Source: Armatimonadia bacterium (GTDB lineage: Bacteria; Armatimonadota; Zipacnadia; Zipacnadales; JABUFB01). From it: a DNA stretch of 43,557 nucleotides. Shown here one piece after another: positions 1 through 38,583 of this stretch (within the stretch, counting starts at the first letter, position 1; every line of letters starts with the position of its first letter). The DNA is taken from NCBI GenBank assembly GCA_039679385.1, contig JBDKVB010000096.1:1-43557 (forward strand), read 5' to 3'. The notes under the pieces were generated by a model. It saw only the letters and a list, made by a program, of their open reading frames with translations. It did not search any database and had not been told where the DNA came from. The position numbers were made by a program, and so were the translations under genes.

Positions 1-1115
1 ACACCATCGCCTTCGGCCGCACCGGGTTCATCGGCATGCAGCTCATGAAGCATCCGCACGGCGTGGTGCGTGAGTATCACCTGATGCAGGCCTTCGGTCG
101 CGCCTACACCGGACAGTTGGCGAACCGGATACGATACGAGGTCGGCGGCAAGATGGTCGATGCGGCGACGGCGGCCCGCTATGGAGAGCTGTCGCGCATC
201 AACGTCGAGTACGAGGGCGGTCAGCAGGTCTATGTGAACCTGTCCGACAAGCCCTGGCGCGTCGCCGGGGAGGAACTGCCGAGCAACGGCAGCTTCACCA
301 CCGGCCCGCGCGGGACGGCAGGCACCGTCCTGCGTGATGGTCAGGTCTGCGACCTGGCGCAGTATGACAAGGTGACCTATGCTGACGCTCGCTCGCAGCA
401 GTGGCTGCCGCCGGCAACTCAGCCGGCGATCGAGCCCTCCGTGGCCTCCTTCAAGGCCCTCGGTGGCAAGGAGTTCGAGCTGACCCTGAACTGGAAGGTC
501 GGCCGCGCCCTGGATCGCGACTACACGATCTTCTGGCACTTCATGGACGAGGGCATCGCCTTCCAGTCCGACCACGCCATCGACCGCAAGACGACCTCGT
601 GGAAGGTCGGCGAGACCATCACCGACGGTCCGCGACGGCTGGCGATCAAGGACGATGCCGCCGTCACCCGCTACGGCGTCTGGGTCGGCCTGTATGACAA
701 CCAGGGCCGGGTGCCCCTCGTGCGCGGTCTCACCAGCGTGCAGATTGGCACGCTCGTCGTCGAGCGCGACGGCGCCGTGGCCAAGTCGGTGCGCCTCGAA
801 CCCGTGGCGCCGCAGCAGATGCCCGGCAGCGATCCTGCCCCGTACCTGGTCGACGCCAACACCACCCATCGTGTGATCGACTTCGGCAAGGTCGCCACCA
901 ACGGCGCCGTGGTCTTGCAGCAGCAGACCAGGGGGATGGAGATCGTCCCCGTGCCCGCCGGTACGGTCATGACCGTGGGGCTGCAGGGCAAGGTCGCTTC
1001 GGTCAGCGCCTGGAACGCGAAGGGCGAGAAGCTCGCGGCACCGCAGCTCACCCGTTACGACAGCAAGACCTGGTTCGAGACTTCGGCCGACGCAGTGCGG
1101 TACCAAGTCCCGTAA
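1..1115 (+). CDS. C-terminal part of a large glycosidase-like protein (5' truncated)
   Basis: The frame is open from base 3, so the gene starts upstream of the window; the ATG at 36 is internal. The first visible residues (TIAFGRTGFIG, then GVVREYHLMQAFG) look like the end of a TIM-barrel catalytic domain. They are followed by a beta-rich segment with VEYEGGQQVYVNLSDKPW, a pattern common after the barrel in large glycosidase-like proteins of environmental bacteria. The remaining 250 or so residues look like beta-sandwich domains. The same order (AYGHICGFGG, GGVRDYYMLQQ, then VVYQNGTEVYVNGSP) occurs in the protein at 1820-5911, so the two appear to be distant paralogues. The catalytic residues, signal peptide and substrate cannot be seen here. 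Assignment to a numbered glycoside hydrolase family is not possible from this fragment. Confidence 0.7.
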   Translation, partial: TIAFGRTGFIGMQLMKHPHGVVREYHLMQAFGRAYTGQLANRIRYEVGGKMVDAATAARYGELSRINVEYEGGQQVYVNLSDKPWRVAGEELPSNGSFTTGPRGTAGTVLRDGQVCDLAQYDKVTYADARSQQWLPPATQPAIEPSVASFKALGGKEFELTLNWKVGRALDRDYTIFWHFMDEGIAFQSDHAIDRKTTSWKVGETITDGPRRLAIKDDAAVTRYGVWVGLYDNQGRVPLVRGLTSVQIGTLVVERDGAVAKSVRLEPVAPQQMPGSDPAPYLVDANTTHRVIDFGKVATNGAVVLQQQTRGMEIVPVPAGTVMTVGLQGKVASVSAWNAKGEKLAAPQLTRYDSKTWFETSADAVRYQVP

Positions 1116-1144
1116 GGGCGGCGTCGTTCTGAGGAGGAGCCAAG

Positions 1145-1759
1145 ATGCCTGCAATCGAGCCCGTGGCCTTCGCTGACGGCCGGGTGCGCTGTGCCTGGGT
1201 GCCTCCCGGTGATGCGCTCTATCTTGCCTACCACGATGAGGAGTGGGGAGTGCCGCTCCACGACGACCAGCGGCTCTTCGAGATGCTGGTGCTCGAGGGT
1301 GCGCAGGCCGGCCTGAGTTGGTCCACCATCCTGCGCAAGCGCGAGAACTACCGCGCCGCTTGTGATGGCTTTGATATCGAGACAGTGGCCGGCTACGGGC
1401 CGGATCGCATCGCCGAACTGCTGACCAACGCGGGGCTGATTCGCAACCGTCGCAAGATGGAGGCGATGGTGGTCAACGCCCGCGGAGTGATGGCGCTCCA
1501 GGAGGACTTCGGCAGCCTCTCGAAGGCGCTGTGGCAGTTCGTCGAGGGGCACGGGGTCGCCCCCGGAGAGCCAGTCAGGAACGCCTGGCGCAGTGTTGGC
1601 GAGATCCCGGCAACGAGTCCTGAGTCGGAGGCCATGAGCAAGTTCTTGCTCCAGCGCGGGTTCAAGTTCGTCGGCCCCACGATCTGCTATGCCTTCATGC
1701 AGGCCGTGGGGATGGTCAACGATCACACCGTAGATTGCTTCCGGTACAACCAGGTGTAG
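1145..1759 (+). CDS. tag: DNA-3-methyladenine glycosylase I
   Basis: This enzyme removes 3-methyladenine from alkylated DNA, the first step of base-excision repair in the cytoplasm. The 204-residue protein matches E. coli Tag along its whole length: RCAWVPPGD near the start, YHDEEWGVPLHDD, LFEMLVLEGAQAGLSW, then GFKFVGPTICYAFMQAVG and NDHTVDC. The catalytic-pocket glutamate corresponds to E51. The Tag zinc site (Cys, His, His, Cys) is retained as C16, H30, H194 and C198. The start is set by a strong GAGGAGG ribosome site about 7 bases before the ATG. The gene lies between two glycosidase-like genes on the same strand, 29 bases after the first and 60 before the second; this neighbourhood does not suggest a shared function. 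No sign of damage or transfer is seen. Confidence 0.97.
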   Translation: MPAIEPVAFADGRVRCAWVPPGDALYLAYHDEEWGVPLHDDQRLFEMLVLEGAQAGLSWSTILRKRENYRAACDGFDIETVAGYGPDRIAELLTNAGLIRNRRKMEAMVVNARGVMALQEDFGSLSKALWQFVEGHGVAPGEPVRNAWRSVGEIPATSPESEAMSKFLLQRGFKFVGPTICYAFMQAVGMVNDHTVDCFRYNQV

Positions 1760-1819
1760 CGGCTACCACGATAGGAGGGCCTGCTTTTCGCGGCCCATCT
1801 TCCTGCTTTGGAGGCTCCC

Positions 1820-4800
1820 ATGCACGCATCCTTCGTCGTCTCGCAGGCCCGGCAGTGTGTTCCGGTCTTGGTGCTGCTCGCCCTGGCCGTGCTCTACCCT
1901 TGCTTCTCAGGAGGCGCTCCCGCCATGGCCCAGACAGTGGTTGTCCATCCGGCTGAGAACCGCGACCCGGAGCAGAACCCGCCGGGAGTCATGCCCTACG
2001 AGATGGCAGAACGTCCCGAGGGCACACCCCTGGTGAGCTTCGACAACGTGACAGGATGGGAAGTCGTCGGCAGCAATGCCGAGGGCCGGCTCTACCAGTC
2101 GGCCGACCAGCACCTGTGGCAGCCGCACTCGGGCAAGCTCCTCTATGTGGGCAAGGGTTCGAACCCGGAGCTCTTCGTGCGGGCGCAGAAGCCGGTTCAG
2201 ATCCCCGACCCCTGGGATAGCCTCAACTGCTGGACCTACGGCAACAACTGGGGCTGGGCGCCGGACCCCAAGACGCCTGTGCTGTCCGTGGCGGCCGTTG
2301 TTCGCGACTCCGCCGGCTGGGAGTTCGAGATCCCGCTGGGCCGCATGGACTACCAGTACTGGTTTTTGATGAACGGGCGGCTACACGCGGAGGAACTGGC
2401 TCGGATCAAGCGCCCGGCCTACTTCCTCGGCCTGCGCTTCCGCAATGCCGGCAATCAGGACCCGCGCACGGTCTACCTGGGGCCCTGCTACTTCTTCAAG
2501 GAGAATCTGCAGCCGCTGAGCTTTGCGCCTGCTCCGGAGAAGCTGCCCTTCCCGACCCGGCCGGAGACCATCCTGCCCACCAACAAGGTGACGGGCTTCC
2601 GCAACGCGGTCCGGCAGGAGGGCAAGGACACGATCTTCGCCTACGCCGGACCTGACTGCAACCTCGAGTACCGCTACACGCCCACCGACGGGACCCTCGG
2701 CGACCTGGGGCTTGTGTACAAGGGCCGGACCGTCCGTCCCTGCGCCGGAGGTGGTGTGCAGTTGGTCGGTCCCGCCGGCATCCTCAAGGCCGACGACCCG
2801 GCGATCAAGCGCACTCTCCGCACGCTGACCCTGGAGAAGGACACCTTGCGGGCCGTCTGGCGGCTCGAAGCGGACAACCTCGCGACAGACGTCGAGTACC
2901 GCTTCCGCATCGCCCAGAAGTCGCTCATCGTGGAGACGACGGTTGCGGAGCCGGTTGCCGAGGCGCTGACCCTGGGACGCGTCGAAGGTGTCACCGATCA
3001 GAAGCTGGTACAGGTGCCCTACCTGACTTACGGCGGCGGCACCAATGACCCGCGTGTGCTCTACGCCCAGGGCCTGTTCTACTTCACCCAGTTTGACTGG
3101 TACGTCTCGGATGCCTCAGTGCTCTATGGTGGCGCTTCGCTGGGACCGGACTGGGCGGTGTGCAACGGTGGCGCTCGCTACAACCCGAAGACCGACGGTA
3201 CCCGCAACCCGGTGCATGAGCGCCTCTTCCTCACCGCCTCGCCGGACTTCGTCGAGGTGCTTCCGAACATCCCGAATCCGCCGTCACCGTGGAAGGAGGT
3301 TCAGGGCGAACGCGTCTGGCGAACCAAGCACGGTGGTGACATCGCTGCGGAGATCGCCGAGGCTACCCACCTGCGCAAGCTTGGCTGTGACAAGGTGACC
3401 GTTCGGTATCATGAGGATAGCTGGCGGGACGGCGGCGAGAGCTTCACCTTCCGCCTTAAGGCAGCTCCCGGTCGCGGCGGAGATGCAGCACTCAAGAACT
3501 TCGTGCAGTCCGTCCAGGCTCTCGGCTGGCGTGTGGGCCTGTACACGAACTACACGGACTATGCTCCCGTGAACTCGTACTGGAACGAGGACTGGGTCAC
3601 GCGCACCAGCAACGGGGACTGGCTCCGAGCCTGGATGCGCTGCTATGCGCCGAAGCCCCTGCGGGCTGTGGAGATGGAGGCCCTGCTGGCGCCGCAGATC
3701 CAGGCCAAGTTCGGCGAGAACCACAGCTACTGCGACGTCCACACCGCCGTCACGCCCTTCTCGCGGGTTGACTACGACGCCCGCGTGCCCGGCGCAGGGA
3801 CCTTCCGCCAGGTCTTCGAGTGCTTTGGCCGCCTGCTGTACAACGAGAAGTTGGCGCACAAGGGCCCGGCCTACTCGGAGGGCAACAACCACTGGTGGTA
3901 CGTCGGTCTCGTGGACGGCAACTACGCCCAGACGCAGGTGGCCTCCAATTCGCCCGAGCGCCTGCTGGTTGACTTCGACCTTCTCAAGATGCACCCGCTC
4001 TGCCTGGACTCCGGGCTCAACTACCGCGGCGGCCCCAGGGTCAGTCGTGACCAGCACCTCGCCTGCATCCTCGCCTACGGCCACATCTGCGGCTTCGGTG
4101 GTCCCGGTGGCTCCTCCGGCGGCGTGCGCGACTACTACATGCTCCAGCAGACCCAGAAGCGCTACGCCATGGAACCGGTCGCGAAGATCGAGTATGACAA
4201 CCAGGGCACGCTGGTGGAGATCTCGCAGGCGATCATCACCGACGCCTACAAGAGCGGTCGCGTGCATGTGGTCTACCAGAACGGCACCGAGGTCTACGTG
4301 AACGGCAGCCCGAGCCTGTGGTCCCTCAAGACCGCTGCGGGGCAACTGGAGTTGCCGGAGTGGGGCTATGTGGTCTTCCGTCCGGGGGAGAACCCCGCGA
4401 CCCGTGGCCTGGACCTGCTGACCGCCTCGACGCTGGTTCCCGTCGCCGGTCCCGAGGCAACCTACGGGCCACGCCAGCGAGTCGAGCAGTCGCTGGGCAC
4501 CGAGCAGTTCTACGCCGACAGTCGCGGTGGCTTCGTGAACCTGGGTGCGCTCGCGCTGGAGGGGACTGCCGCAGTGAAGCGCGATACGGGGGCCTGGTGG
4601 CTGATCCCCCAGGACACCTGCGCCGACGTGGCCTTCTCACCGGTCCTGCTTGGCGCGGAAAAGTCAGTCGGGGTCCGCGTGGAGGCCCTCAAGGAAGATG
4701 ACTCCGCCGGTCCGGCACCGACGCTGCGCTGGAGCCGGGGTCTGCTTCACGTGATTCCAGGTGCGGAGCAGGCCTTCCGGTACCGTCTGACCGCGACTGC

Positions 4801-5911
4801 CGAGTCACAACCGGCACAGGCCTCCTGCGATACGGTACTGGCCCCGATCGGCGCACAGGTCAGGGTTGCCGTCCCCGCCGGAGCTCGCCGCGATCAGGTC
4901 TTCTGGGAAGCGGACGGCCGCCGTCAGCCTGCCGCCGTGCAGTCGCGTGACGGTGGGCTGATCTGCGAGGTCCCGGCCAACCTGCAGCCCGGCAAGCACC
5001 TCTGGCTCGGACTGCCGACGGACAAGGACACTCTCTGGCTGGACTTCGTCGCCGCCGCTCCGCTGACCGTGACGCTGGATTCGCCCCTGCCGACAACGCT
5101 TCAGCCCGGCGGGCGTCTCGAGTGCACCGCGCATGTCTCCAGCCTGCTTGACGCCGAGGCGCAGGTCAGCACCTCGGCCTCGGTAGCCGGCGGAACCTGT
5201 GAGCCGCCGACCGGGGCAGTGCGCGTACCTGCCCGGGGGATCGTCTCCTGGCGGTTCGCGGTCGCACTCCCGGCAACTCCCGGTCGCAGCGACATCGTCT
5301 GCCAGGCTAGCAGCGGCACCTACAAGGGGAGCGGCGCTCTGGCAGTGAGCACCGAGTCCGTGTACCCGATCGTCGCCGACCTGCTGGACCCGAACCGGCC
5401 CTTCAACCGTGGTCGCTGCGTCCGTGGCGGTCAGGAGATAGAGGGCTTCGGCGTGGTCGAGGAGGGCAGCTTCGAGCCCATGGCCGGGACCTGCGGCGGC
5501 GTGACCCGCAACGGCTTTTTCTCGCATCCGCCCTATGCGAACGGGAAGGTCGGCTACAGCTTCGCCGTCTGGGATATCGCCTTGCCCGCGGGGCACACGA
5601 GTGCCTTCACCACCCAGATCGGCATGCGCGACGGCCTGCATACCACCGACGGCGTGACCTTCAAGGTGGTGGTCATCGACGCCGCCGGGAAGGCGACGGA
5701 GCTGTTCTCACGCCATCACGACGAGTTGCGCTGGGAGCCGGTGACGGTTGACCTGAAGGCCTTCGCGGGGCAGAAGATCCGCCTCAAGCTCATCGCGGAC
5801 TGCGGCCCTGCCAACAACACGACCGCCGACCACGCCTTCTGGGCGGAGCCGAAGGTGATCGTCAGGGACGAGGCTGCGCGGGAGACCATCGTCACCGCCG
5901 CCGCGAAGTAG
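1820..5911 (+). CDS. Large secreted glycosidase-like protein with C-terminal NPCBM-like domain
   Basis: The 1363-residue protein begins at the ATG at 1820, which has GGAGG (1810-1814) five bases upstream; the in-frame TTG at 1808 overlaps that site and is unlikely. A hydrophobic signal peptide ends near residue 37 (APAMAQ). After beta-sandwich-like regions, a TIM-barrel-like section runs from about residue 490 to 800. It contains VRYHEDSW, SYCDVHTA (D639) and AYSEGNNHWW (E687), an Asp/Glu pair placed like the nucleophile and acid/base of retaining glycosidases; GH101-like enzymes are the nearest type I recognise. The last 170 or so residues resemble an NPCBM carbohydrate-binding domain (GGVTRNGFFSHPP, VTVDLKAFAGQKIRLKL). 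It probably acts on an extracellular or periplasmic glycan, but the substrate is unknown. The upstream truncated gene has the same post-barrel domain pattern. Confidence 0.8.
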   Translation: MHASFVVSQARQCVPVLVLLALAVLYPCFSGGAPAMAQTVVVHPAENRDPEQNPPGVMPYEMAERPEGTPLVSFDNVTGWEVVGSNAEGRLYQSADQHLWQPHSGKLLYVGKGSNPELFVRAQKPVQIPDPWDSLNCWTYGNNWGWAPDPKTPVLSVAAVVRDSAGWEFEIPLGRMDYQYWFLMNGRLHAEELARIKRPAYFLGLRFRNAGNQDPRTVYLGPCYFFKENLQPLSFAPAPEKLPFPTRPETILPTNKVTGFRNAVRQEGKDTIFAYAGPDCNLEYRYTPTDGTLGDLGLVYKGRTVRPCAGGGVQLVGPAGILKADDPAIKRTLRTLTLEKDTLRAVWRLEADNLATDVEYRFRIAQKSLIVETTVAEPVAEALTLGRVEGVTDQKLVQVPYLTYGGGTNDPRVLYAQGLFYFTQFDWYVSDASVLYGGASLGPDWAVCNGGARYNPKTDGTRNPVHERLFLTASPDFVEVLPNIPNPPSPWKEVQGERVWRTKHGGDIAAEIAEATHLRKLGCDKVTVRYHEDSWRDGGESFTFRLKAAPGRGGDAALKNFVQSVQALGWRVGLYTNYTDYAPVNSYWNEDWVTRTSNGDWLRAWMRCYAPKPLRAVEMEALLAPQIQAKFGENHSYCDVHTAVTPFSRVDYDARVPGAGTFRQVFECFGRLLYNEKLAHKGPAYSEGNNHWWYVGLVDGNYAQTQVASNSPERLLVDFDLLKMHPLCLDSGLNYRGGPRVSRDQHLACILAYGHICGFGGPGGSSGGVRDYYMLQQTQKRYAMEPVAKIEYDNQGTLVEISQAIITDAYKSGRVHVVYQNGTEVYVNGSPSLWSLKTAAGQLELPEWGYVVFRPGENPATRGLDLLTASTLVPVAGPEATYGPRQRVEQSLGTEQFYADSRGGFVNLGALALEGTAAVKRDTGAWWLIPQDTCADVAFSPVLLGAEKSVGVRVEALKEDDSAGPAPTLRWSRGLLHVIPGAEQAFRYRLTATAESQPAQASCDTVLAPIGAQVRVAVPAGARRDQVFWEADGRRQPAAVQSRDGGLICEVPANLQPGKHLWLGLPTDKDTLWLDFVAAAPLTVTLDSPLPTTLQPGGRLECTAHVSSLLDAEAQVSTSASVAGGTCEPPTGAVRVPARGIVSWRFAVALPATPGRSDIVCQASSGTYKGSGALAVSTESVYPIVADLLDPNRPFNRGRCVRGGQEIEGFGVVEEGSFEPMAGTCGGVTRNGFFSHPPYANGKVGYSFAVWDIALPAGHTSAFTTQIGMRDGLHTTDGVTFKVVVIDAAGKATELFSRHHDELRWEPVTVDLKAFAGQKIRLKLIADCGPANNTTADHAFWAEPKVIVRDEAARETIVTAAAK

Positions 5912-5969
5912 GCCTCGGCGAAGGCGACCCGTGGTCAGGGCTCGTCATGTAGGGGCGAGCTGCCACCGC

Positions 5970-7907
5970 CTAGCCGCTGCGTCCAGCCAGTATGCTTACG
6001 GTTTTCTGGCGAAGGGATTGAGCGATCCGCGACCAAGCCTGGTCGCGCCTATTCCAGTGCCTGCTGCTGACAGGATGTCCATCAGTGGGCAAGGCTTGGA
6101 GTGCGCCAAAGGGAAGGTCCTGCCAGACGCAGTCTCGGATGATCACGGGCACAACCGTTGCCTCGCCTGCCTGGTGACGCTCCAGTGCTCTTTGTGCTTC
6201 GACCTTGTAGCAGTAGTCGGAGCCGATGAAGTCGGCGCTGACCAAGAGCAAGACTAACTCAGCCGTCTCGAGGTGCTCACTGATCTCGCTGCGCCATTCG
6301 TCACCAGGCCCCATTCTGTCATCGTACCAGAGCTCTACCAGCTTGCTGCGTCGGAGCGGGCTCAGCTGTGCCAACAACTCGTCGAGCAGCCGTCTGTCCT
6401 TGTGCGAATAGGATATGAACACTTGGACCGGCCGAGAGGGCGGCGCGCATGGCGCGGGACTCCGCATCGTTGTCAGGTAGTCGCGGTCCTCAATCACCTT
6501 GAGTATCGTCGACCTCGTCGACGGGCGAAGCCGGTCGTCAGCAACCTCACGCATTCGACGCAGCCCATCTACCACCTGTCGGCCGTGGCGCTTGGTCAAC
6601 TCCCAGAGCTTCTGTACGGTCTCCCTCTCGTCCGCCTCTGGGAGCCAATCCACAACCATCGCCAGTTCCGACACCATCCTTGTGTAGAACTCCTCCTGGC
6701 TGTAGCTCTCAAAGTCCGAGGCCTGTTGGAGGTAGTCGATCACAGCCCCCTTGACCCTGCCATCGGGAACGTCTTGCTTGACGAAGTCAACTGCGTAGAA
6801 CCCTGCGTCGTCACAGTCCTCCAACCCGGCAGCGTATTCGGAAAACCTCCGGTCGATGCATTGTGAACACCCCCCACAGTGGGTGCTCTGGCCCCCAGTC
6901 TTCCTCGTCTTGCTGCAGGAGACTGAGCTGGACAGCAGATCAGACTGCCCACGTTCGCGCAGCAACGCCATGGTGTCGGTCTTGGTCCTCCAGAGGAACG
7001 GCGTCTCGATGCTAAACGGGGCTCCACTGACCTCCGAGAACAGCTCCGCCAGCAGCGCGATGGTTCGTGGGTGCGTTGTCCTACTTGCCCGTGCGTTCAT
7101 GAGGTCTTGCCGTCTCGCGAAGTTCAGCGATGTGATTCCATTCTCGTACACGTGAATGCGGTTGGTTCCGACGGAACTGGCGCACGCGAATGCGATGGTC
7201 GCGTAGAGCAAGAAGCGGCTGCGCTGCGTCTCCTCGTGCTGGCTTGAGCCTATCAGACCGCACTTGAAGGGCACCGGCGTCACTCTGTTGGGGAACCTCT
7301 CGTCCAGCGCCCTAATCAGTCCATCCTGTGTCCTCGCGATGGAGCTCTGCGACCTGTGACTGACCAGCATGACCGGGCCACCGGTGGAGGAGAGCTGCTC
7401 GACGGCTCCCGCCAATGAGTCCACACCACCCGAGAGCAGAGTCACCTCGCTTCCTGTCCTGCAAACACACCCCGGACGGTCAAAGAGGTTCTCTGGGACG
7501 TCGTTGGTGCTTCTCTCGAACCGCAGCTCCACACGAGCTTCACCTGACAGGAACAGGAGCAAGTCGCTGAGCTGTTGCCCGGCCTCTGACGTGGACCAGA
7601 AGTCGAAGTCACGAACACGGAACCAGAACTCCAGATTCCTGCCCCACGAGTGGTACTCGACAGCGTCCCTGTGGCCTCTCGGGATCAGGCGGTCCGCGCA
7701 GTAGATGTAGGACGCTATCTCGATGAGGTCTTTGGCCCTAGCCGACAGGTGATAGACGCTGTTGATGAACCCGGGAAGGCCAATCCGCACATTAGGAACT
7801 ACTGCCTGCCCGCGTCGCCACTCGAGCCGGTGAATCGCTGCATCGCCGTGGCCCCCTGCTCCGGGGTTCGCTCCACCGCACAGGATCACGTGAGGGTGCC
7901 GGGTCAT
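5970..7907 (-). CDS. QueC-like PP-loop enzyme fused to a TIR domain; candidate immune protein
   Basis: The 645-residue protein has two recognisable halves. Residues 1-470 are a QueC-like (7-cyano-7-deazaguanine synthase superfamily) module. It has an N-terminal extension of the kind found in the Qat/CBASS-associated branch (VILCGG at 7-12, IYCADRLIPR at 68-77), the PP-loop LLSGGVDSLAG (157-167), and a zinc knuckle C331, C344, C347, C350 within STHCGGCSQCIDRRFS. Residues 494-635 are a TIR domain (VFISYSHKD, ELWYDDRMGPGDEW), with E570 in SDYCYKVEAQRA at the position of the NADase glutamate. Housekeeping QueC is about 220-240 residues and has no TIR. The ATG overlaps the stop of the upstream gene as ATGA, so translation is coupled. 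GC is visibly lower than in neighbours (7081-7140 is 33/60 G+C, against 41/60 at 3661-3720). Seen: both domains and motifs. Inferred: nucleobase or ATP-dependent modification coupled to NAD+ depletion in antiphage defence. Confidence 0.88.
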   Translation of the reverse strand: MTRHPHVILCGGANPGAGGHGDAAIHRLEWRRGQAVVPNVRIGLPGFINSVYHLSARAKDLIEIASYIYCADRLIPRGHRDAVEYHSWGRNLEFWFRVRDFDFWSTSEAGQQLSDLLLFLSGEARVELRFERSTNDVPENLFDRPGCVCRTGSEVTLLSGGVDSLAGAVEQLSSTGGPVMLVSHRSQSSIARTQDGLIRALDERFPNRVTPVPFKCGLIGSSQHEETQRSRFLLYATIAFACASSVGTNRIHVYENGITSLNFARRQDLMNARASRTTHPRTIALLAELFSEVSGAPFSIETPFLWRTKTDTMALLRERGQSDLLSSSVSCSKTRKTGGQSTHCGGCSQCIDRRFSEYAAGLEDCDDAGFYAVDFVKQDVPDGRVKGAVIDYLQQASDFESYSQEEFYTRMVSELAMVVDWLPEADERETVQKLWELTKRHGRQVVDGLRRMREVADDRLRPSTRSTILKVIEDRDYLTTMRSPAPCAPPSRPVQVFISYSHKDRRLLDELLAQLSPLRRSKLVELWYDDRMGPGDEWRSEISEHLETAELVLLLVSADFIGSDYCYKVEAQRALERHQAGEATVVPVIIRDCVWQDLPFGALQALPTDGHPVSSRHWNRRDQAWSRIAQSLRQKTVSILAGRSG

Positions 7908-8680
7908 GCCCTTGACCCCTCCCTCGTCATCTCATCTCGCAGCTTCGTCAGCGCGTAGTTGAAAACCCCCCGAATGCTGGACTTGGGCGGCATGCCCTTC
8001 TGTGCGTGCTTGTTGAACCATCCCGCAGCGAGAGACTGTGTGATCTTCGAAGTCTCGAGCGCGTGCTGAGACACGTCGGCCAGGTAACTCTGAAGGTCGG
8101 CTCGTACCTGGTCGCTGTGCGAGAGCGAGGGGCCAACGGCGGACAGCTCACGCTCCAGGAAATACCTCAGATAGCGCTCTACAATCTTGGAGAAGAACAA
8201 GCGCGAGAGTTCGCAGAAGCCTCGACCGCTCTGCAGCGCGTCCCAGGTGCTGTCCGCGCAGCCGAAGCCTTCGAACAGGCTGACGTCCTGAACGCGATGC
8301 GTCTGGTACCACAAGGCCAACGCATCGGCTCCCGCGGCCGCTGACAGCTCGCGGTACTCGGGAGACGAGTCGATCGATGCGAGGCGAGAACGCAGGACTC
8401 GCACGAGGCGCAAGGGCGTCAGTGGCCCGCCGTCGTCCAGTCCCGGCATACCGCTGAGGCCACCCGTTCTCGCCCGCACGGACAACTCAACGAGGAAACT
8501 GAAGGCTTCAAGCGGTGCAGGGTCATCCTGGAACCACCTAAGCCTACTGCGTGTCGCTCGTAGGGTCTCGCCAGCGATGGTGCCGACGTCGTACTCGCCG
8601 CCCGTCAGCGACCCTACATCGGCCACGATGCTGCGCCATCGCTTGCTCTTTGGGAGTACACCGATCCGCTCGTGACCCAT
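7904..8680 (-). CDS. Unrecognised partner protein of the QueC-TIR fusion
   Basis: This 258-residue, mostly alpha-helical protein has no signal peptide, membrane segment or catalytic motif I can name. Its N-terminus is Met-Gly (MGHERIGVLPKSKRW), so Met removal would expose Gly; QatB proteins, the partners of QueC-like QatC, also tend to begin Met-Gly as I recall them. A conserved-looking stretch lies at 151-180 (SGRGFCELSRLFFS, then ERYLRYFLERE), followed near the C-terminus by a polar region with GWFNKHAQKGMPP. The start has GAGGGGTGA about 5 bases upstream. The stop overlaps the next start as ATGA, which makes this the first gene of a two-gene operon. Both genes share lower GC than the surroundings. 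It could be the sensor, or the substrate that the QueC-like enzyme modifies. This role is inferred from position and from the analogy with Qat, not from sequence identity. Confidence 0.8.
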   Translation of the reverse strand: MGHERIGVLPKSKRWRSIVADVGSLTGGEYDVGTIAGETLRATRSRLRWFQDDPAPLEAFSFLVELSVRARTGGLSGMPGLDDGGPLTPLRLVRVLRSRLASIDSSPEYRELSAAAGADALALWYQTHRVQDVSLFEGFGCADSTWDALQSGRGFCELSRLFFSKIVERYLRYFLERELSAVGPSLSHSDQVRADLQSYLADVSQHALETSKITQSLAAGWFNKHAQKGMPPKSSIRGVFNYALTKLRDEMTREGSRA

Positions 8681-9059
8681 GGCGTCACCCCTCGAGGGAT
8701 GTCCGGCTGCTTCCTAGCGGTCGACGGCCGCACCTTCCAACAGATATTCTGTCGAAAGATACGCATTGCAGAGCAGGGGTCATGCATGCGGCGTCTTTCC
8801 CACACCCAAGGCCGAGTGCCGTGTCCATTTCGCCATAGCATGGCATTTACCTTCGACGCTTTCGTGCGCATCGCACTGCCGCCACAGCATCGTGTACACA
8901 CTAGATCGAACGGGCCGTGTCTCGCGGGACGCCTGCCTGAAGCAAGCACCCTCAGCCTTTCAGCGTACGCCCTGAAGGTGCCACCGGCTCGCGTGCGCAA
9001 TCCTGTGTGCGTCCTGGTCCGGCCCTGGCGGGAGGACTGAGCACAAGGGCGGGCGGCGC
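8681..9059. other. Intergenic stretch between divergent genes
   Basis: These 379 bases separate the QueC-TIR operon from the broken permease. Apart from the candidate promoter and palindrome at 8740-8783 and a short GCCAT/ATGGC inverted repeat at 8832-8844, I see no coding region, tRNA, direct repeat or insertion-sequence end. Because the adjacent permease is damaged, part of this stretch may be remnant sequence. Confidence 0.5.
8740..8783 (-). promoter_or_regulatory. Possible promoter and operator of the QueC-TIR operon
   Basis: On the minus strand, ATGACC (8778-8783) and TATCTT (8756-8761) are separated by 16 bases and match 4 of 6 bases each of the sigma-70 boxes. Just downstream, at 8740-8752, is ACAGATATTCTGT, two 5-base arms around TAT, placed where a repressor could overlap the transcription start. 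The start codon is at 8680. The boxes are weak, so this is only a candidate. Confidence 0.25.
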
Positions 9060-9384
9060 ATGAAGCAGCTCTTTGCCCGCGAGACGCTCAGCCAGGTGTA
9101 CGAAGGAATGAAGGGTGAGAACCGGCTCCGGCGAGTGCTGGGGCCGGTCGGTCTCACCTCCCTCGGGATCGGGTGCGTCATCGGCGCCGGGATCTTCGCC
9201 ATCACCGGTCTCGTCGCCCATGACAAGACGGGACCGGCGCTCATCGTCTCCTTCGTGGTCGCCGGTGTGGCTGGTGATCGGCATGGTGGTCTACTTCGGC
9301 TACGGCCGCCGCCACAGCCACCTGGGCCGGAGACTCGCGCAGGGCGAAGAGACCCAACTCGCCTCCGAGGAATCGGGCGAGTAG
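9060..9384 (+). pseudogene. Amino-acid permease (cationic amino-acid transporter type) with most of the middle deleted
   Basis: The N-terminal 70 or so residues are those of an APC-superfamily amino-acid permease: an amphipathic leader, then RRVLGPVGLTSLGIGCVIG, AGIFAITG and LIVSFVVAGVA, the first membrane segments. At about 9261-9275 the frame changes. The new frame reads VWLVIGMVVYFGYGRRHS to a stop at 9384, the last membrane helix and tail of the same family. Full permeases are about 480-500 residues, so roughly 380-400 are missing. Without the frame change the first frame runs on as nonsense into the next gene. At the junction, one stretch (around GCCGGTGTGGCTGG) fits both flanks, which suggests deletion between short identical sequences. 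No function is expected. An assembly collapse is the alternative explanation. Confidence 0.82.
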
Positions 9385-9429
9385 GCTCAGACAGGCACTC
9401 AGCGACGACCCACCAGTGCACCTTCACCC

Positions 9430-9464
9430 AACAGCCACCCTTCTCCCGGGTGGCTGTTTCGTCT
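9430..9464 (+). terminator. Rho-independent terminator
   Basis: AACAGCCACCC (9430-9440) pairs perfectly with GGGTGGCTGTT (9448-9458) around a 7-base loop and is followed by TCGTCT. It probably ended the permease transcript and now separates the permease remnant from the next gene. Confidence 0.75.
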
Positions 9465-9552
9465 CTGCATGCTCCTCGGCAGGAACCTGCCCTGTCGTGC
9501 CGAAGGAGAGGAGGCCGGCTTACGGTTTGGTGCCACTGGGGAGGCGAGGACT

Positions 9553-12168
9553 GTGAGAGTGTGCCCTTTCCGGCCAGGATTGCTGCTGGTGCCGCTCCTT
9601 GCCTGGGCCCAGCCTACGGACACAGAGGCAAGGCAGCAGCAGATGCGCGAGTACGTGGCGGCCGAGCGCGTTTGGGCAGAAGACGGCCTCACCGCGTCCA
9701 TCTCCGACTGCCACACCGACGTCCCCTTCCTCGATGACTACCGTCCTTCCGAGTACCTGCCCCTGGCTGAGATGCCGCGTGCCCGAGCCCGTGGCTTCCT
9801 CCTCGTATCGCCGGGTGTCTACGAGATGGACGCCGCCGGGTTCTGTCTCCACGCCGGAGCCTACCGGCCCTCTCGTGGCGATGGCTATGCACCGGGGCCC
9901 CTTGTCGGGCGAGCCTCAGGGCCGGTCCACGAGGTCCTGTGGAACTGGGCCGAGCACCCCGAGATCAAGCAGCGGGAGGTCCAGTGCCTGCTCTGGGCAC
10001 TGGTGGGACGGATGGAAGTGGATCGCCTGAAGCCGGAGATCCAGCGGACCGCCAGGGCGCTGCTGAGCGAGAAGGGACTTGCGGCGGCGAGGACCCAGCA
10101 ACGGGGTCCGCGTCCGGAGCAGCCGGAGCTGATCAGTCCCGAGTTGCAGGCTGAGCTCGAGGCTGCCGGGGCCCAGATGAACACAGACACTGCGCAGCCC
10201 AGGCAGGAGATGGAGGCGGCCTCCAAGGCCTTCGAGGAACTCACCGCACGCCTCGAAGGGGGAGAGCAGGTCGACCAGAAAGAGCTTGCAGCCGCTCTCG
10301 AGAGAGTGTTGAAGGCACAGCAAGCCGTGCTGCAGCCGACTGCACAGGCCGTGACCCGGATTCAGGCTGCTGCCGCGAAGCTGGAGGAGGCTCTGTCCGC
10401 ACTGAGCGCACCCTACAGTGAACTGGAGCGCGTCGCCGTTCCGGAGGGCAACCCGGATCCGCCCGCAGGTAGCCGCAAGATCCCCACCGGACGCTGGTCC
10501 TATCAGGCCGGCGGGGTCTTCGTGCGCTACCTGCCCGAAGACTACACCCGAGTCCGCGTCGAGGTCTCGCTGCCACCGGCCTTCACGGTCCGGCGCGATG
10601 CTCTGGGCCGAATCTGCGACCTGACGAGCGAAGCCGGTAGCGCGGTTAGCTTCGCCTGGGCAGAGCCTGCTGTGCCACTCGCGGTGCCCGGCGACGACGC
10701 GGTACGCGGCTATGCACTCACAAGCCTGCAGGTCACGAAGTCAGGCACGAAGGGAGCGCCGACGGCGGTCTCCGGCTGGGCCTTCGTCGGTGTGCCCTCG
10801 GGGAAAGGGGCGCCGCAGGACGCCGGTGCCTTCACGGGTGTCGAGGCGAAATATCGTGCGGCGCTGCAGCACCGCGCTGAGGTGCTTGACCTGGTGAAGG
10901 CTCTGTCGAAGCCCACCGCCGGGGCCGGTGAGGCACAGACACAGGTCTCGCTGGAGAGCCTTGCGGACGCCCTGGACCTGGGAAGCCTGGCAGAGGCGCT
11001 CCGACCGATGGCCAAGAGCTCGAAGGGGTCTGCCGGAGCGTTGCGAGTGGTCCAGGAGGCCTGGCAGGCTGCCCTCTGTGAGCGCGTCGCCGACCTTCCC
11101 GGGGCGCAGGCAAGCCCAACTTCCGGGCCATCCCCACAGACCTCAAACCGCCCGTGCTCACCAGGCCCTGCAGGGCCGCAAGTCACACTGGAGCCGAGAG
11201 TCCGCTTCGCCGCCTTCTCCGGGATGGGCGGCCTCGGGCTGACGCTGACTCAGAGGCAGATCGGTCCCGGCCTGCCGACCTTCGACCCCGGTGCCAGCGT
11301 GGTTACGCCGGGCAACTCGGCTCGCCAGCGGCTGGGAATCGGGCCGGTACAGAGTCCGGTGGCCGAGCCGAAGGAGATGCTCCAGAAGGCCGTCGATAGC
11401 TGCGACTTTCTGAAGGGCCTGCTGGACGTCTTCAATGGCCTGACGGACCCGCTCGGCTTCCTCATGGAGAAGCTCGGGCTGGGTGCCGGTGGGCTGCCGG
11501 GGATGATGCTGGACGGGATGCTGGGCTGGATCTTCGATGCGGCAGCGGGGATCGCACAGGCCCTCGGAGGAGATCCGCCGCGCGCCGACTTCCGCGAGTT
11601 CACGCTGCCACCTCCGCCGGTCTTGCCCCAGTACGTGGCCGGTGAAGGGCTGTCTGAGGACAGGGCACGGGCCGGCAACGATGCAGCCTCGGCCTTCCTG
11701 CGGATGTACGAGTCGCTGCGAGCCGCCCAGATCGCCGGTGATCGTCTGGGAGGTGCCCTGGAGGCCTGCGACGAGGACTGGGCTCGGCGCCAGGCGAGGG
11801 CCTTCGTCTATCACAAGCGCGTGGCCGGTCTTCGTATGGTGACCGCCGCAGACCGGTACAGCGCGCTCCTCAAGGTGATGGAGCAGGAGGGTGCCGAGGA
11901 CCGGCGACTCACTGAAGCCGAAGTGGCGTCCTGGCAGGCAAGGCTACGCACCGAGGGTTTCAACGAGGCTTCCCTCAAGGCGGCACGGCAACTGGGGCTC
12001 AGCGAGGAGGAGATCGAGGCTGCTCGCCTACGTCGCCTGGCAGTAACGTGGGAGGACCTGCCTGACGAGGGCCTCCTCTCGACGGGCAGCGCTGTGGCGA
12101 CCAGCCTTCGGGCAGTGGGCAGGCACTGGAGTCGGCTGCCGGAGCTTCCGGCGCCAGAGATGGAGTAG
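9553..12168 (+). CDS. Secreted protein of unknown function, 871 residues
   Basis: The GTG at 9553 is chosen because GAGGCGAGGA lies just upstream and a signal peptide follows directly (GLLLVPLLAWAQ, cleavage near residue 19-20). An earlier in-frame start at 9469 would put this signal in the interior. Residues 100-155 contain AGAYRPSRGDGYAP and WAEHPEIKQREVQCLLWAL; I have seen this type of segment in uncharacterised exported proteins of environmental bacteria, with no assigned function. Residues 195-290 are Glu/Gln/Ala-rich and probably a coiled coil. A beta-rich part follows, then a Pro/Ser-rich linker near residue 530, a Gly/Leu/Met-rich hydrophobic stretch near 640-690 (GLGAGGLPGMMLDGMLGWIF), and a helical C-terminus. 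The amphipathic central stretch could contact membranes. No enzyme motif is seen. Confidence 0.75.
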   Translation: MRVCPFRPGLLLVPLLAWAQPTDTEARQQQMREYVAAERVWAEDGLTASISDCHTDVPFLDDYRPSEYLPLAEMPRARARGFLLVSPGVYEMDAAGFCLHAGAYRPSRGDGYAPGPLVGRASGPVHEVLWNWAEHPEIKQREVQCLLWALVGRMEVDRLKPEIQRTARALLSEKGLAAARTQQRGPRPEQPELISPELQAELEAAGAQMNTDTAQPRQEMEAASKAFEELTARLEGGEQVDQKELAAALERVLKAQQAVLQPTAQAVTRIQAAAAKLEEALSALSAPYSELERVAVPEGNPDPPAGSRKIPTGRWSYQAGGVFVRYLPEDYTRVRVEVSLPPAFTVRRDALGRICDLTSEAGSAVSFAWAEPAVPLAVPGDDAVRGYALTSLQVTKSGTKGAPTAVSGWAFVGVPSGKGAPQDAGAFTGVEAKYRAALQHRAEVLDLVKALSKPTAGAGEAQTQVSLESLADALDLGSLAEALRPMAKSSKGSAGALRVVQEAWQAALCERVADLPGAQASPTSGPSPQTSNRPCSPGPAGPQVTLEPRVRFAAFSGMGGLGLTLTQRQIGPGLPTFDPGASVVTPGNSARQRLGIGPVQSPVAEPKEMLQKAVDSCDFLKGLLDVFNGLTDPLGFLMEKLGLGAGGLPGMMLDGMLGWIFDAAAGIAQALGGDPPRADFREFTLPPPPVLPQYVAGEGLSEDRARAGNDAASAFLRMYESLRAAQIAGDRLGGALEACDEDWARRQARAFVYHKRVAGLRMVTAADRYSALLKVMEQEGAEDRRLTEAEVASWQARLRTEGFNEASLKAARQLGLSEEEIEAARLRRLAVTWEDLPDEGLLSTGSAVATSLRAVGRHWSRLPELPAPEME

Positions 12169-36362: not shown

Positions 36363-38583
<2,221 letters not shown>

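What the first reader, a model, noticed from the sequence alone, without database searches (positions are those of the whole stretch)
7904..8680. Met-Gly N-terminus of the partner may be the target of the QueC-like enzyme
The partner begins MGHERIG, so Met removal would expose Gly. As I recall, QueC-like enzymes of type IV CBASS have been reported to attach a 7-deazaguanine-type base to a protein N-terminus, and QatB, partner of QatC, also begins Met-Gly. If the same chemistry applies, the 258-residue protein is the acceptor and the attached TIR could read out loss or gain of that mark. This is inference from analogy.
Basis: inference. Interest (0 to 1): 0.75.

Follow-up and report, generated by a model that had tools for sequence, protein, structure and literature searches.

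The report
Invariant Met-Gly-His tail beside QatC-TIR
A small helical protein that pairs with a QatC-like enzyme fused to a TIR domain always starts Met-Gly-His in its relatives, which makes its exposed first glycine a good candidate for the spot that the enzyme modifies during defence against phages, although the chemical mark itself remains unknown.

Summary
The 258-aa protein (8680-7904, minus) starts MGHERIG, ATG is its only possible start, and it overlaps a QatC-TIR gene by 4 bp. I searched with profiles lacking the first 30 residues, so the result could not select for the N-terminus. In 87 of 87 loci that contain the N-terminus, Gly-His directly follows the start codon (92 loci found). 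Across 61 non-redundant proteins only M1, G2, H3 and W221 are invariant. The downstream enzyme's own N-terminus varies freely.

The partner is a remote QatB relative. QatB is the best PDB fold match (Z 12.1; next unrelated 6.8), and an MGTS-starting QatBC-like family, present in this same genome, bridges the two. Gly2 of QatB is essential in published work. The only two homologues found without a neighbouring QatC have Ala2.

Against the proposed base: the pocket has Ser/Thr (85 of 85), not the Tyr/Asp that binds 7-carboxy-7-deazaguanine, and 10 of 50 hosts show neither QueC nor QueD. "Gly2 is the acceptor" is well supported; "7-deazaguanine" is not; TIR read-out is untested. The enzyme's C-terminal domain is interchangeable (TIR, nuclease, others), so this looks like a compact, effector-fused QatBC variant.

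The parts
7904..8680 (-). QatB-like partner, 258 aa, ten predicted helices; candidate N-terminal acceptor
   Evidence: ORF; AF2 model pLDDT 90.7; best PDB match QatB, Z 12.1
8639..8680 (-). Residues 1-14: tail MGHERIGVLPKSKR before helix 1 (helix starts at residue 15; residues 1-10 low confidence)
   Evidence: P10, T/S12 and W15 shared with the MGTS bridge family
8672..8677 (-). Codons of Gly2 and His3, invariant in 61 of 61 non-redundant homologues
8688..8693 (-). GAGGGG Shine-Dalgarno-like site
   Evidence: sequence printed
5970..7907 (-). QatC-like enzyme fused to TIR, 645 aa, 4-bp overlap with the partner
   Evidence: PADLOC QatC 4.4e-44, Pfam TIR_2 9.3e-17; NCBIfam QatC 169 bits, below its 280 cut-off
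6468..7898 (-). QatC fold, residues 4-480, with N- and C-terminal extensions
   Evidence: Z 35.1 over 407 residues to QatC 9y01_B
7416..7433 (-). SGGVDS pyrophosphate loop, residues 159-164
   Evidence: SGGxDS invariant in 85 of 85
7077..7085 (-). Substrate-pocket residues S275 and T277 (equivalent to QatC T278/T280)
   Evidence: alignment to PDB QatC; S/T in 85 of 85 at both positions
6849..6878 (-). Zinc loop CGGCSQCIDR, residues 344-353; Q349 and D352 are specific to MGH-partner enzymes
5979..6434 (-). TIR domain, residues 492-643; candidate catalytic Glu570 (codon 6198-6200)

Best explanation
The two genes form a compact QatBC-type defence module. Methionine aminopeptidase removes Met1 of the QatB-like partner (inferred from Gly2). 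Its short tail (Gly2-His3 ... Pro10-x-Ser/Thr12-x-x-Trp15) enters the active site of the QatC-like domain, where the Gly2 amine attacks an ATP-activated carboxylate and becomes covalently modified (inferred from QatC/Cap9). The mark is probably not the CDG-derived 7-deazaguanine of type IV CBASS. Infection changes the state of the partner-enzyme complex and releases the fused effector, here a TIR that would consume NAD+ (inferred). Shown here: the gene pair, the invariant start, the QatB/QatC folds, the intact ATP and zinc motifs, and the interchangeable C-terminal domains. Not shown: Met removal, complex formation, any modification, defence.
For: Gly-His after the start in 87 of 87 loci, found without using the N-terminus. 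M1, G2, H3 among only four invariant columns. QatC-like ORF adjacent in 91 of 92 (the miss is L073). QatB is the top PDB fold match, Z 12.1 against 6.8 for the next entry. Bridge family: A7 versus A9, both without N-termini, E 5.4e-17; bridge versus QatB, prob 78%, E 1.7e-5. Bridge proteins start MGTS and share P10, T/S12 and W15. Published: QatB G2D and deletion of residues 16-22 (Pro16, Trp18) abolish defence (PMC13279940). The two homologues without adjacent QatC have Ala2. SGGxDS and the zinc cysteines are kept. Of the near-invariant enzyme positions examined, only Q349 and D352, in the zinc loop, separate MGH- from MGTS-partner enzymes. Neighbours include integrases, recombinases and defence genes.
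Against: No modification has been shown for QatB either; Gao et al. could not reconstitute QatC activity. The tail is about 13 residues against 65 in P. aeruginosa QatB, and whether it reaches the active site was not modelled. Direct profile comparison with eight plasmid QatB proteins failed (prob 1.3%), so kinship rests on fold and the bridge. The QatB match is not significant by Foldseek E-value (0.23), and Z 12 is below the tool's caution level of about 13 for helical bundles. The orphans keep LGPFPKT..W, so part of the motif may serve the fold. The MGH/MGTS difference in the zinc loop may be one ancient split, not repeated co-change.
Confidence: 0.52

Rival explanations
1. One reading: the QatC-like domain attaches CDG to Gly2 exactly as Cap9 does (7-amido-7-deazaguanine).
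For: Cap9 chemistry on a protein N-terminus (PMC11996544, abstract). The Cap9-CdnD structure matches the QatC domain, Z 13.0. The host genome has adjacent QueC and QueD genes.
Against: Ser/Thr in place of the Tyr/Asp pair in 85 of 85; changing QatC T278/T280 to Tyr/Asp abolished defence (PMC13279940). 10 of 50 hosts have neither QueC over cut-off nor a QueD match, four of them isolates by record title; 9 of those 10 keep Tgt, as a base salvager would.
Confidence: 0.15
2. The tail enters the active site but is not modified: Gly2-His3 acts as a plug or pseudosubstrate that keeps the enzyme-effector fusion off until infection displaces it.
For: Tail conservation and the zinc-loop co-difference need only contact. 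Published work: the QatB tail sits in the QatC site, but no product has been found (PMC13279940).
Against: ATP-loop and zinc residues are conserved across 85 enzymes, which suggests kept catalysis; QatC S156A/S161A abolishes defence (PMC13279940).
Confidence: 0.22
3. The start is conserved for folding or metal binding (free Gly-His can bind Cu or Ni; recalled, no call), not for the enzyme.
For: Orphan homologues keep LGPFPKT..W without QatC; W15 begins helix 1 in the model.
Against: Those orphans lack exactly Gly2-His3; Gly2 is shared with MGTS families although residue 3 differs; residues 1-10 have mean pLDDT 60.
Confidence: 0.08

Closest known systems
qatABCD (QatB-QatC)
   Same: QatB fold (Z 12.1), QatC fold (Z 35.1 over 407 residues), adjacent genes, Met-Gly start with downstream Pro and Trp, SGGxDS, Ser/Thr pocket, zinc cysteines.
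   Different: MGH, not MGTS; tail about 13 residues, not 30-90; QatC fused to an effector domain; zinc loop SQCxD, not xPCxx; no QatA or QatD seen beside the window pair.
Type IV CBASS Cap9-CdnD
   Same: QueC-family enzyme beside a partner whose N-terminal Gly is the proposed acceptor; Cap9 fold match Z 13.0.
   Different: No CD-NTase or Cap10 seen; Tyr/Asp CDG pair absent; enzyme has QatC extensions.
Stand-alone QatBC-like bridge family (MGTS..RSP.T.EW) in the host's phylum, including this genome (L132)
   Same: Homologous partner (E 5.4e-17 without N-termini), P10/T12/W15, adjacent QatC-like gene.
   Different: MGTS start, no C-terminal effector (109-117 aa from CGxCxxC to the end in four read), housekeeping neighbours in the two read.
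TIR effectors (Cat1, AbTIR; PADLOC ThsB profile)
   Same: TIR fold and a Glu near the catalytic position.
   Different: Joined to a QatC enzyme; NADase activity untested.

Membership tests
QatC | QatC fold with N- and C-terminal extensions | tested here: met
   Z 35.1, 407 residues aligned, model 4-480
QatC | SGGxDS, zinc cysteines, Thr/Ser pocket | tested here: met
QatC | NCBIfam NF041925 equivalog cut-off (280 bits) | tested here: not met
   169.1 bits: a relative, not an equivalog
QatB | QatB helical fold | tested here: met
   top of 350,542 chains, prob 0.97; Z 12.1; Foldseek E 0.23, so moderate
QatB | sequence-profile similarity to QatB | tested here: inconclusive
   direct prob 1.3%; indirect through the bridge family; eight QatB proteins only
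QatB | MGTS motif | tested here: not met
   MGH in 61 of 61 non-redundant
QatB | disordered N-terminal tail of 30-90 residues | tested here: not met
   helix 1 starts at residue 15; residues 1-10 mean pLDDT 60
qatABCD | four genes including QatA ATPase and QatD TatD nuclease | tested here: not met
   none seen among window ORFs read: ORFs 5000-11500 and ten larger ORFs by Pfam; not every ORF was scanned
Cap9 / type IV CBASS | Tyr/Asp CDG-recognition pair | tested here: not met
   S275/T277
Cap9 / type IV CBASS | N-terminal NDG adduct on the partner | not testable with these tools
   needs mass spectrometry
TIR NADase | TIR fold with catalytic Glu | tested here: met
   TIR_2 9.3e-17, TIR matches Z up to 12.5; Glu570 near the aligned Glu, one residue offset
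TIR NADase | NAD+ hydrolysis | not testable with these tools
   needs an assay

The most novel reading that the evidence does not exclude
A widespread two-protein class of Qat-like immunity in which the modifying enzyme is itself fused to an interchangeable effector (TIR, DpnII/MboI-type nuclease, others) and writes a non-deazaguanine mark on an invariant Gly-His N-terminus, with the enzyme's zinc loop (SQCxD) matched to that tail. Gain or loss of the mark would switch the effector within one complex.
Probability: 0.33. Interest if true: 0.82.

Novelty: new variant of a known kind. Interest (0 to 1): 0.62.

Why it matters
What QatC does to QatB, and how that stops phage, is stated as open by the authors of the structure. 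A two-gene version with a built-in effector gives a direct read-out: NAD+ loss or DNA cleavage could report whether the N-terminal tail is modified, and the tail is short enough for simple peptide mass spectrometry. Hosts with no QueC or QueD match suggest a different substrate and make that testable by deleting queD or queE in a laboratory strain.

Tried and rejected
Searching for relatives with the full-length window protein in viral contigs found none; the N-terminally truncated profile worked. PADLOC and Pfam gave no family for the partner even at E up to 1; NCBIfam gave one irrelevant weak match (15 bits against a cut-off of 200); PHROGs none at 0.1. Sequence search of the partner profile against PDB gave only weak unrelated chains. 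Direct hhalign to QatB failed. Fold search in viral structures found nothing.

QueE: profile TIGR03365 was tried in 21 genomes. It missed genomes that have QueC and QueD, so it is not used as evidence of absence.

Rejected: wrong start codon (in-frame stop upstream and no alternative start); ascertainment bias (N-terminus not in the query; the single genome-scan pattern lies near residues 212-221); chance Gly2 (downstream gene as control). The label 'wHTH-like' for many C-terminal domains is by eye only; Pfam found no family there except PF18742 in L009 (over cut-off) and L059 (below cut-off) and TIR in L017 among ten scanned, one of which (L104) is a classical QatC fused to TatD. The split 3 TIR / 23 nuclease-like / 56 other / 4 none or truncated, of 86 enzymes with a zinc motif, is by sequence motif. 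L043 and L057 seem frameshifted, L031 has a run of N and L061 ends at its contig end.

Dropped before counts: 5 of 92 loci without an N-terminus; homologues at 80% identity or more (89 sequences to 61). L002-L005 are the same genes as L010, L012, L060 and L058 (matching contig lengths) and were not counted twice in the 89. The enzyme alignment of 85 holds the window and 84 of the 92 loci, those with an ORF over 380 aa with SGGxD. Of the 28 places, 15 loci were read and one more was fetched (L132).
Full report
WHAT IS THERE. On the minus strand, 8680..7904 encodes a 258-residue protein beginning MGHERIGVLPKSKRW, and 7907..5970 encodes a 645-residue protein; they overlap by 4 bp. An in-frame TAG lies 12 codons before the ATG with no alternative start between, and GAGGGG sits just upstream. 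The large protein is QatC-like at its N-terminal side (PADLOC QatC E 4.4e-44; PDB QatC 9vlk and 9zee, E 1.7e-26 and 9.4e-25) and TIR at its C-terminal side (Pfam TIR_2 9.3e-17). It falls below NCBIfam's QatC cut-off (169 against 280 bits). Its AlphaFold model (mean pLDDT 79.3, weaker in the TIR half) aligns to QatC with Z 35.1 over 407 residues and to TIR domains with Z up to 12.5.

TEST OF THE N-TERMINUS. To avoid selecting for the motif, I searched with alignments from which the first 30 residues had been cut (A2). The genome scan gave 66 loci and the viral-contig scan 26. In 87 of 92 the N-terminus is present, and in all 87 a start codon is followed at once by Gly-His. In the 59 non-redundant loci from these two scans the start codon is ATG in 55, GTG in 2 and TTG in 2, so conservation begins at residue 2 whatever the start codon. 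The five without an N-terminus are short or cut ORFs; one of them, L028, has the motif upstream in another frame. Among 61 non-redundant proteins (these 59, the window and L007; mean identity 34%), only M1, G2, H3 and W221 are invariant; R5, G7, L9, P10 and W15 are at 90% or more. Residues 2-15 score 0.648 against 0.428 for the rest. The adjacent enzymes' own residues 2-15 score 0.361 against 0.460. A QatC-like ORF is beside the partner in 91 of 92 loci.

HOMOLOGUES WITHOUT QatC. Two genomes of the host's phylum hold a homologue with no QatC beside it. G080 (L006, 14-kb region L100) reads MARRSSSLGPFPKTHRW; G132, split over two contigs (L130, L131), reads MASKSLGPFPKTVRW from an inferred TTG start. 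Both have Ala2, yet keep LGPFPKT..W. The Gly-His start thus goes with the enzyme, while the later part of the motif may serve the fold. This rests on two related proteins only.

WHAT THE PARTNER IS. Its model (pLDDT 90.7; residues 1-10 mean 60; first helix at 15; ten helices) was compared with 350,542 PDB chains. The first hit was QatB (9y02_A, prob 0.97, TM 0.45/0.53; the Foldseek E-value of 0.23 is not significant), with a second QatB chain at rank 4. VIA-align gives Z 12.1 over 190 residues, model 14-255 to QatB 72-287; the next entry has 6.8. The tool warns that helical bundles can reach about 13 by arrangement alone, so the sequence bridge matters. A truncated profile (A7) searched in 291 genomes of the phylum matched 27. 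Of 15 loci read, 12 start MGTS with ..RSP.T.(E/A/G/Q)W and lie by a QatC-like gene where the locus reaches that far; two are the orphans and one is a fragment. This window's own genome has such a pair (MGTSTAQRSPRSPEW plus a QatC-like ORF of 459 codons, L132). Truncated profiles of the two families match at E 5.4e-17, and the bridge family matches QatB with prob 78%, E 1.7e-5, whereas the direct comparison with QatB fails. All three groups share Met-Gly; the MGH and bridge families share P10, T/S12 and W15, and published QatB has conserved Pro16 and Trp18.

WHAT IS PUBLISHED. Gao et al. 2026 (PMC13279940; parts 1, 2, 3 and 5 of 6 read) show that QatB G2D and deletion of residues 16-22 abolish defence, that the tail is modelled in the QatC site, that QatC has two Thr in place of the CDG-binding Tyr/Asp, and that its reaction is unresolved. 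Libby et al. 2026 (PMC13329287; parts 1 and 2 of 5 read) describe the same divergence and find a tyrosine in the zinc region of E. coli QueC essential. The Cap9 paper was seen as abstract only (PMC11996544); its journal version and a second QatBC paper are not held. I found no mention of a QatC-TIR or other effector-fused QatC in searches; one search listed three papers on deazaguanylation, and a word search for TIR in the two QatC/QueC papers gave none. The library lacks most subscription papers and bioRxiv.

CHEMISTRY. In 85 enzymes of this class SGGxDS is invariant and the zinc cysteines are invariant apart from one gap. The residues equivalent to QatC T278/T280 are Ser/Thr and Thr/Ser in 85 of 85; none has Tyr/Asp. 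Of 50 genomes that carry the pair, 27 have QueC over cut-off and 39 have any QueD match (21 over cut-off); 10 have neither QueC over cut-off nor any QueD match. Four of the ten are isolates by their record titles (L041, L042, L049, L066) and one is a single-contig chromosome (L013). Nine of these ten still have Tgt, as expected of hosts that salvage a later base. The host of this window does have QueC and QueD. The 7-deazaguanine proposal is therefore unlikely for the class, though not excluded for this host. Draft genomes and divergent QueD proteins could inflate the ten.

A POSSIBLE RECOGNITION PAIR. Aligning 85 MGH-partner, 12 bridge and 8 plasmid QatC enzymes, I asked which positions conserved at 95% in the first group differ in both others. 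Only two do: Q349 (84 of 85; Pro in 11 of 12 and 7 of 8) and D352 (83 of 84; hydrophobic or Tyr elsewhere), both in the zinc loop CGxCSQCxDR. Five more plasmid QatC enzymes read later also have the Pro. This fits contact with His3 in place of Thr3, but could be a single ancient split.

OUTPUT DOMAIN AND SETTING. The domain after the QatC part varies: TIR in 3 of 86 (window, L010, L017), a PD-(D/E)XK-type domain in 23 (Pfam DpnII-MboI over cut-off in L009), other in 56, none or truncated in 4 (by motif). Among 126 of 129 selected neighbouring proteins from 48 selected loci, Pfam found 10 phage integrases, 8 resolvases and 5 D5_N primase-type proteins, and PADLOC found Thoeris-, Pycsar-, Dpd- and restriction-type proteins (no background set was run). 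This fits mobile defence islands and a role as interchangeable effector, but defence was not tested.

VERDICT. Gly2 as acceptor is the best reading. The base is probably not 7-deazaguanine, and TIR read-out is a hypothesis. It is a new, compact, effector-fused variant of QatBC.

Noticed in passing
L132 (G000:C94:45000-53000), 3024-5433 +: The host genome carries a second, effector-less QatB/QatC-like pair (MGTSTAQRSPRSPEW) next to lepA; similar pairs occur in other genomes of the order beside housekeeping genes (MFS and AIR synthase in L134), which might mean a chromosomal, non-mobile role.
   Followed up: partly
window 36402-37472, minus: Canonical tRNA-guanine transglycosylase Tgt (TIGR00430 E 3.5e-149), about 28 kb from the pair; probably unrelated.
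   Followed up: no
window 9060-9737, plus: N-terminal piece that looks like an amino-acid permease, then losing the frame, just upstream of the pair; perhaps a broken gene at an insertion site (by eye, no family search).
   Followed up: no
L105 (Mesorhizobium sp. AR10 plasmid), 513-6125: CHAT-domain protein, then a QatB-like protein with a Gly-rich tail (MGSSGSGAGGG), a QatC-like enzyme and an ASCH protein, without QatA or QatD seen: another possible Qat variant.
   Followed up: no
L137 (Agrobacterium) and L140 (Bosea) plasmids: Protein of about 190 aa, a gene annotated 7-cyano-7-deazaguanine synthase, and an XRE-family regulator in a row; the enzyme did not match my SGGxD pattern.
   Followed up: no
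L104 (Bradyrhizobium ottawaense plasmid), 4381-6510: Classical QatC fused to the TatD nuclease QatD in one protein, a separate example of a QatC-effector fusion.
   Followed up: partly
Neighbours of MGH loci (A10): One neighbour is DpdF of the 7-deazaguanine DNA-modification system (E 3.4e-204) and others match Pycsar PycC and PycTIR.
   Followed up: no
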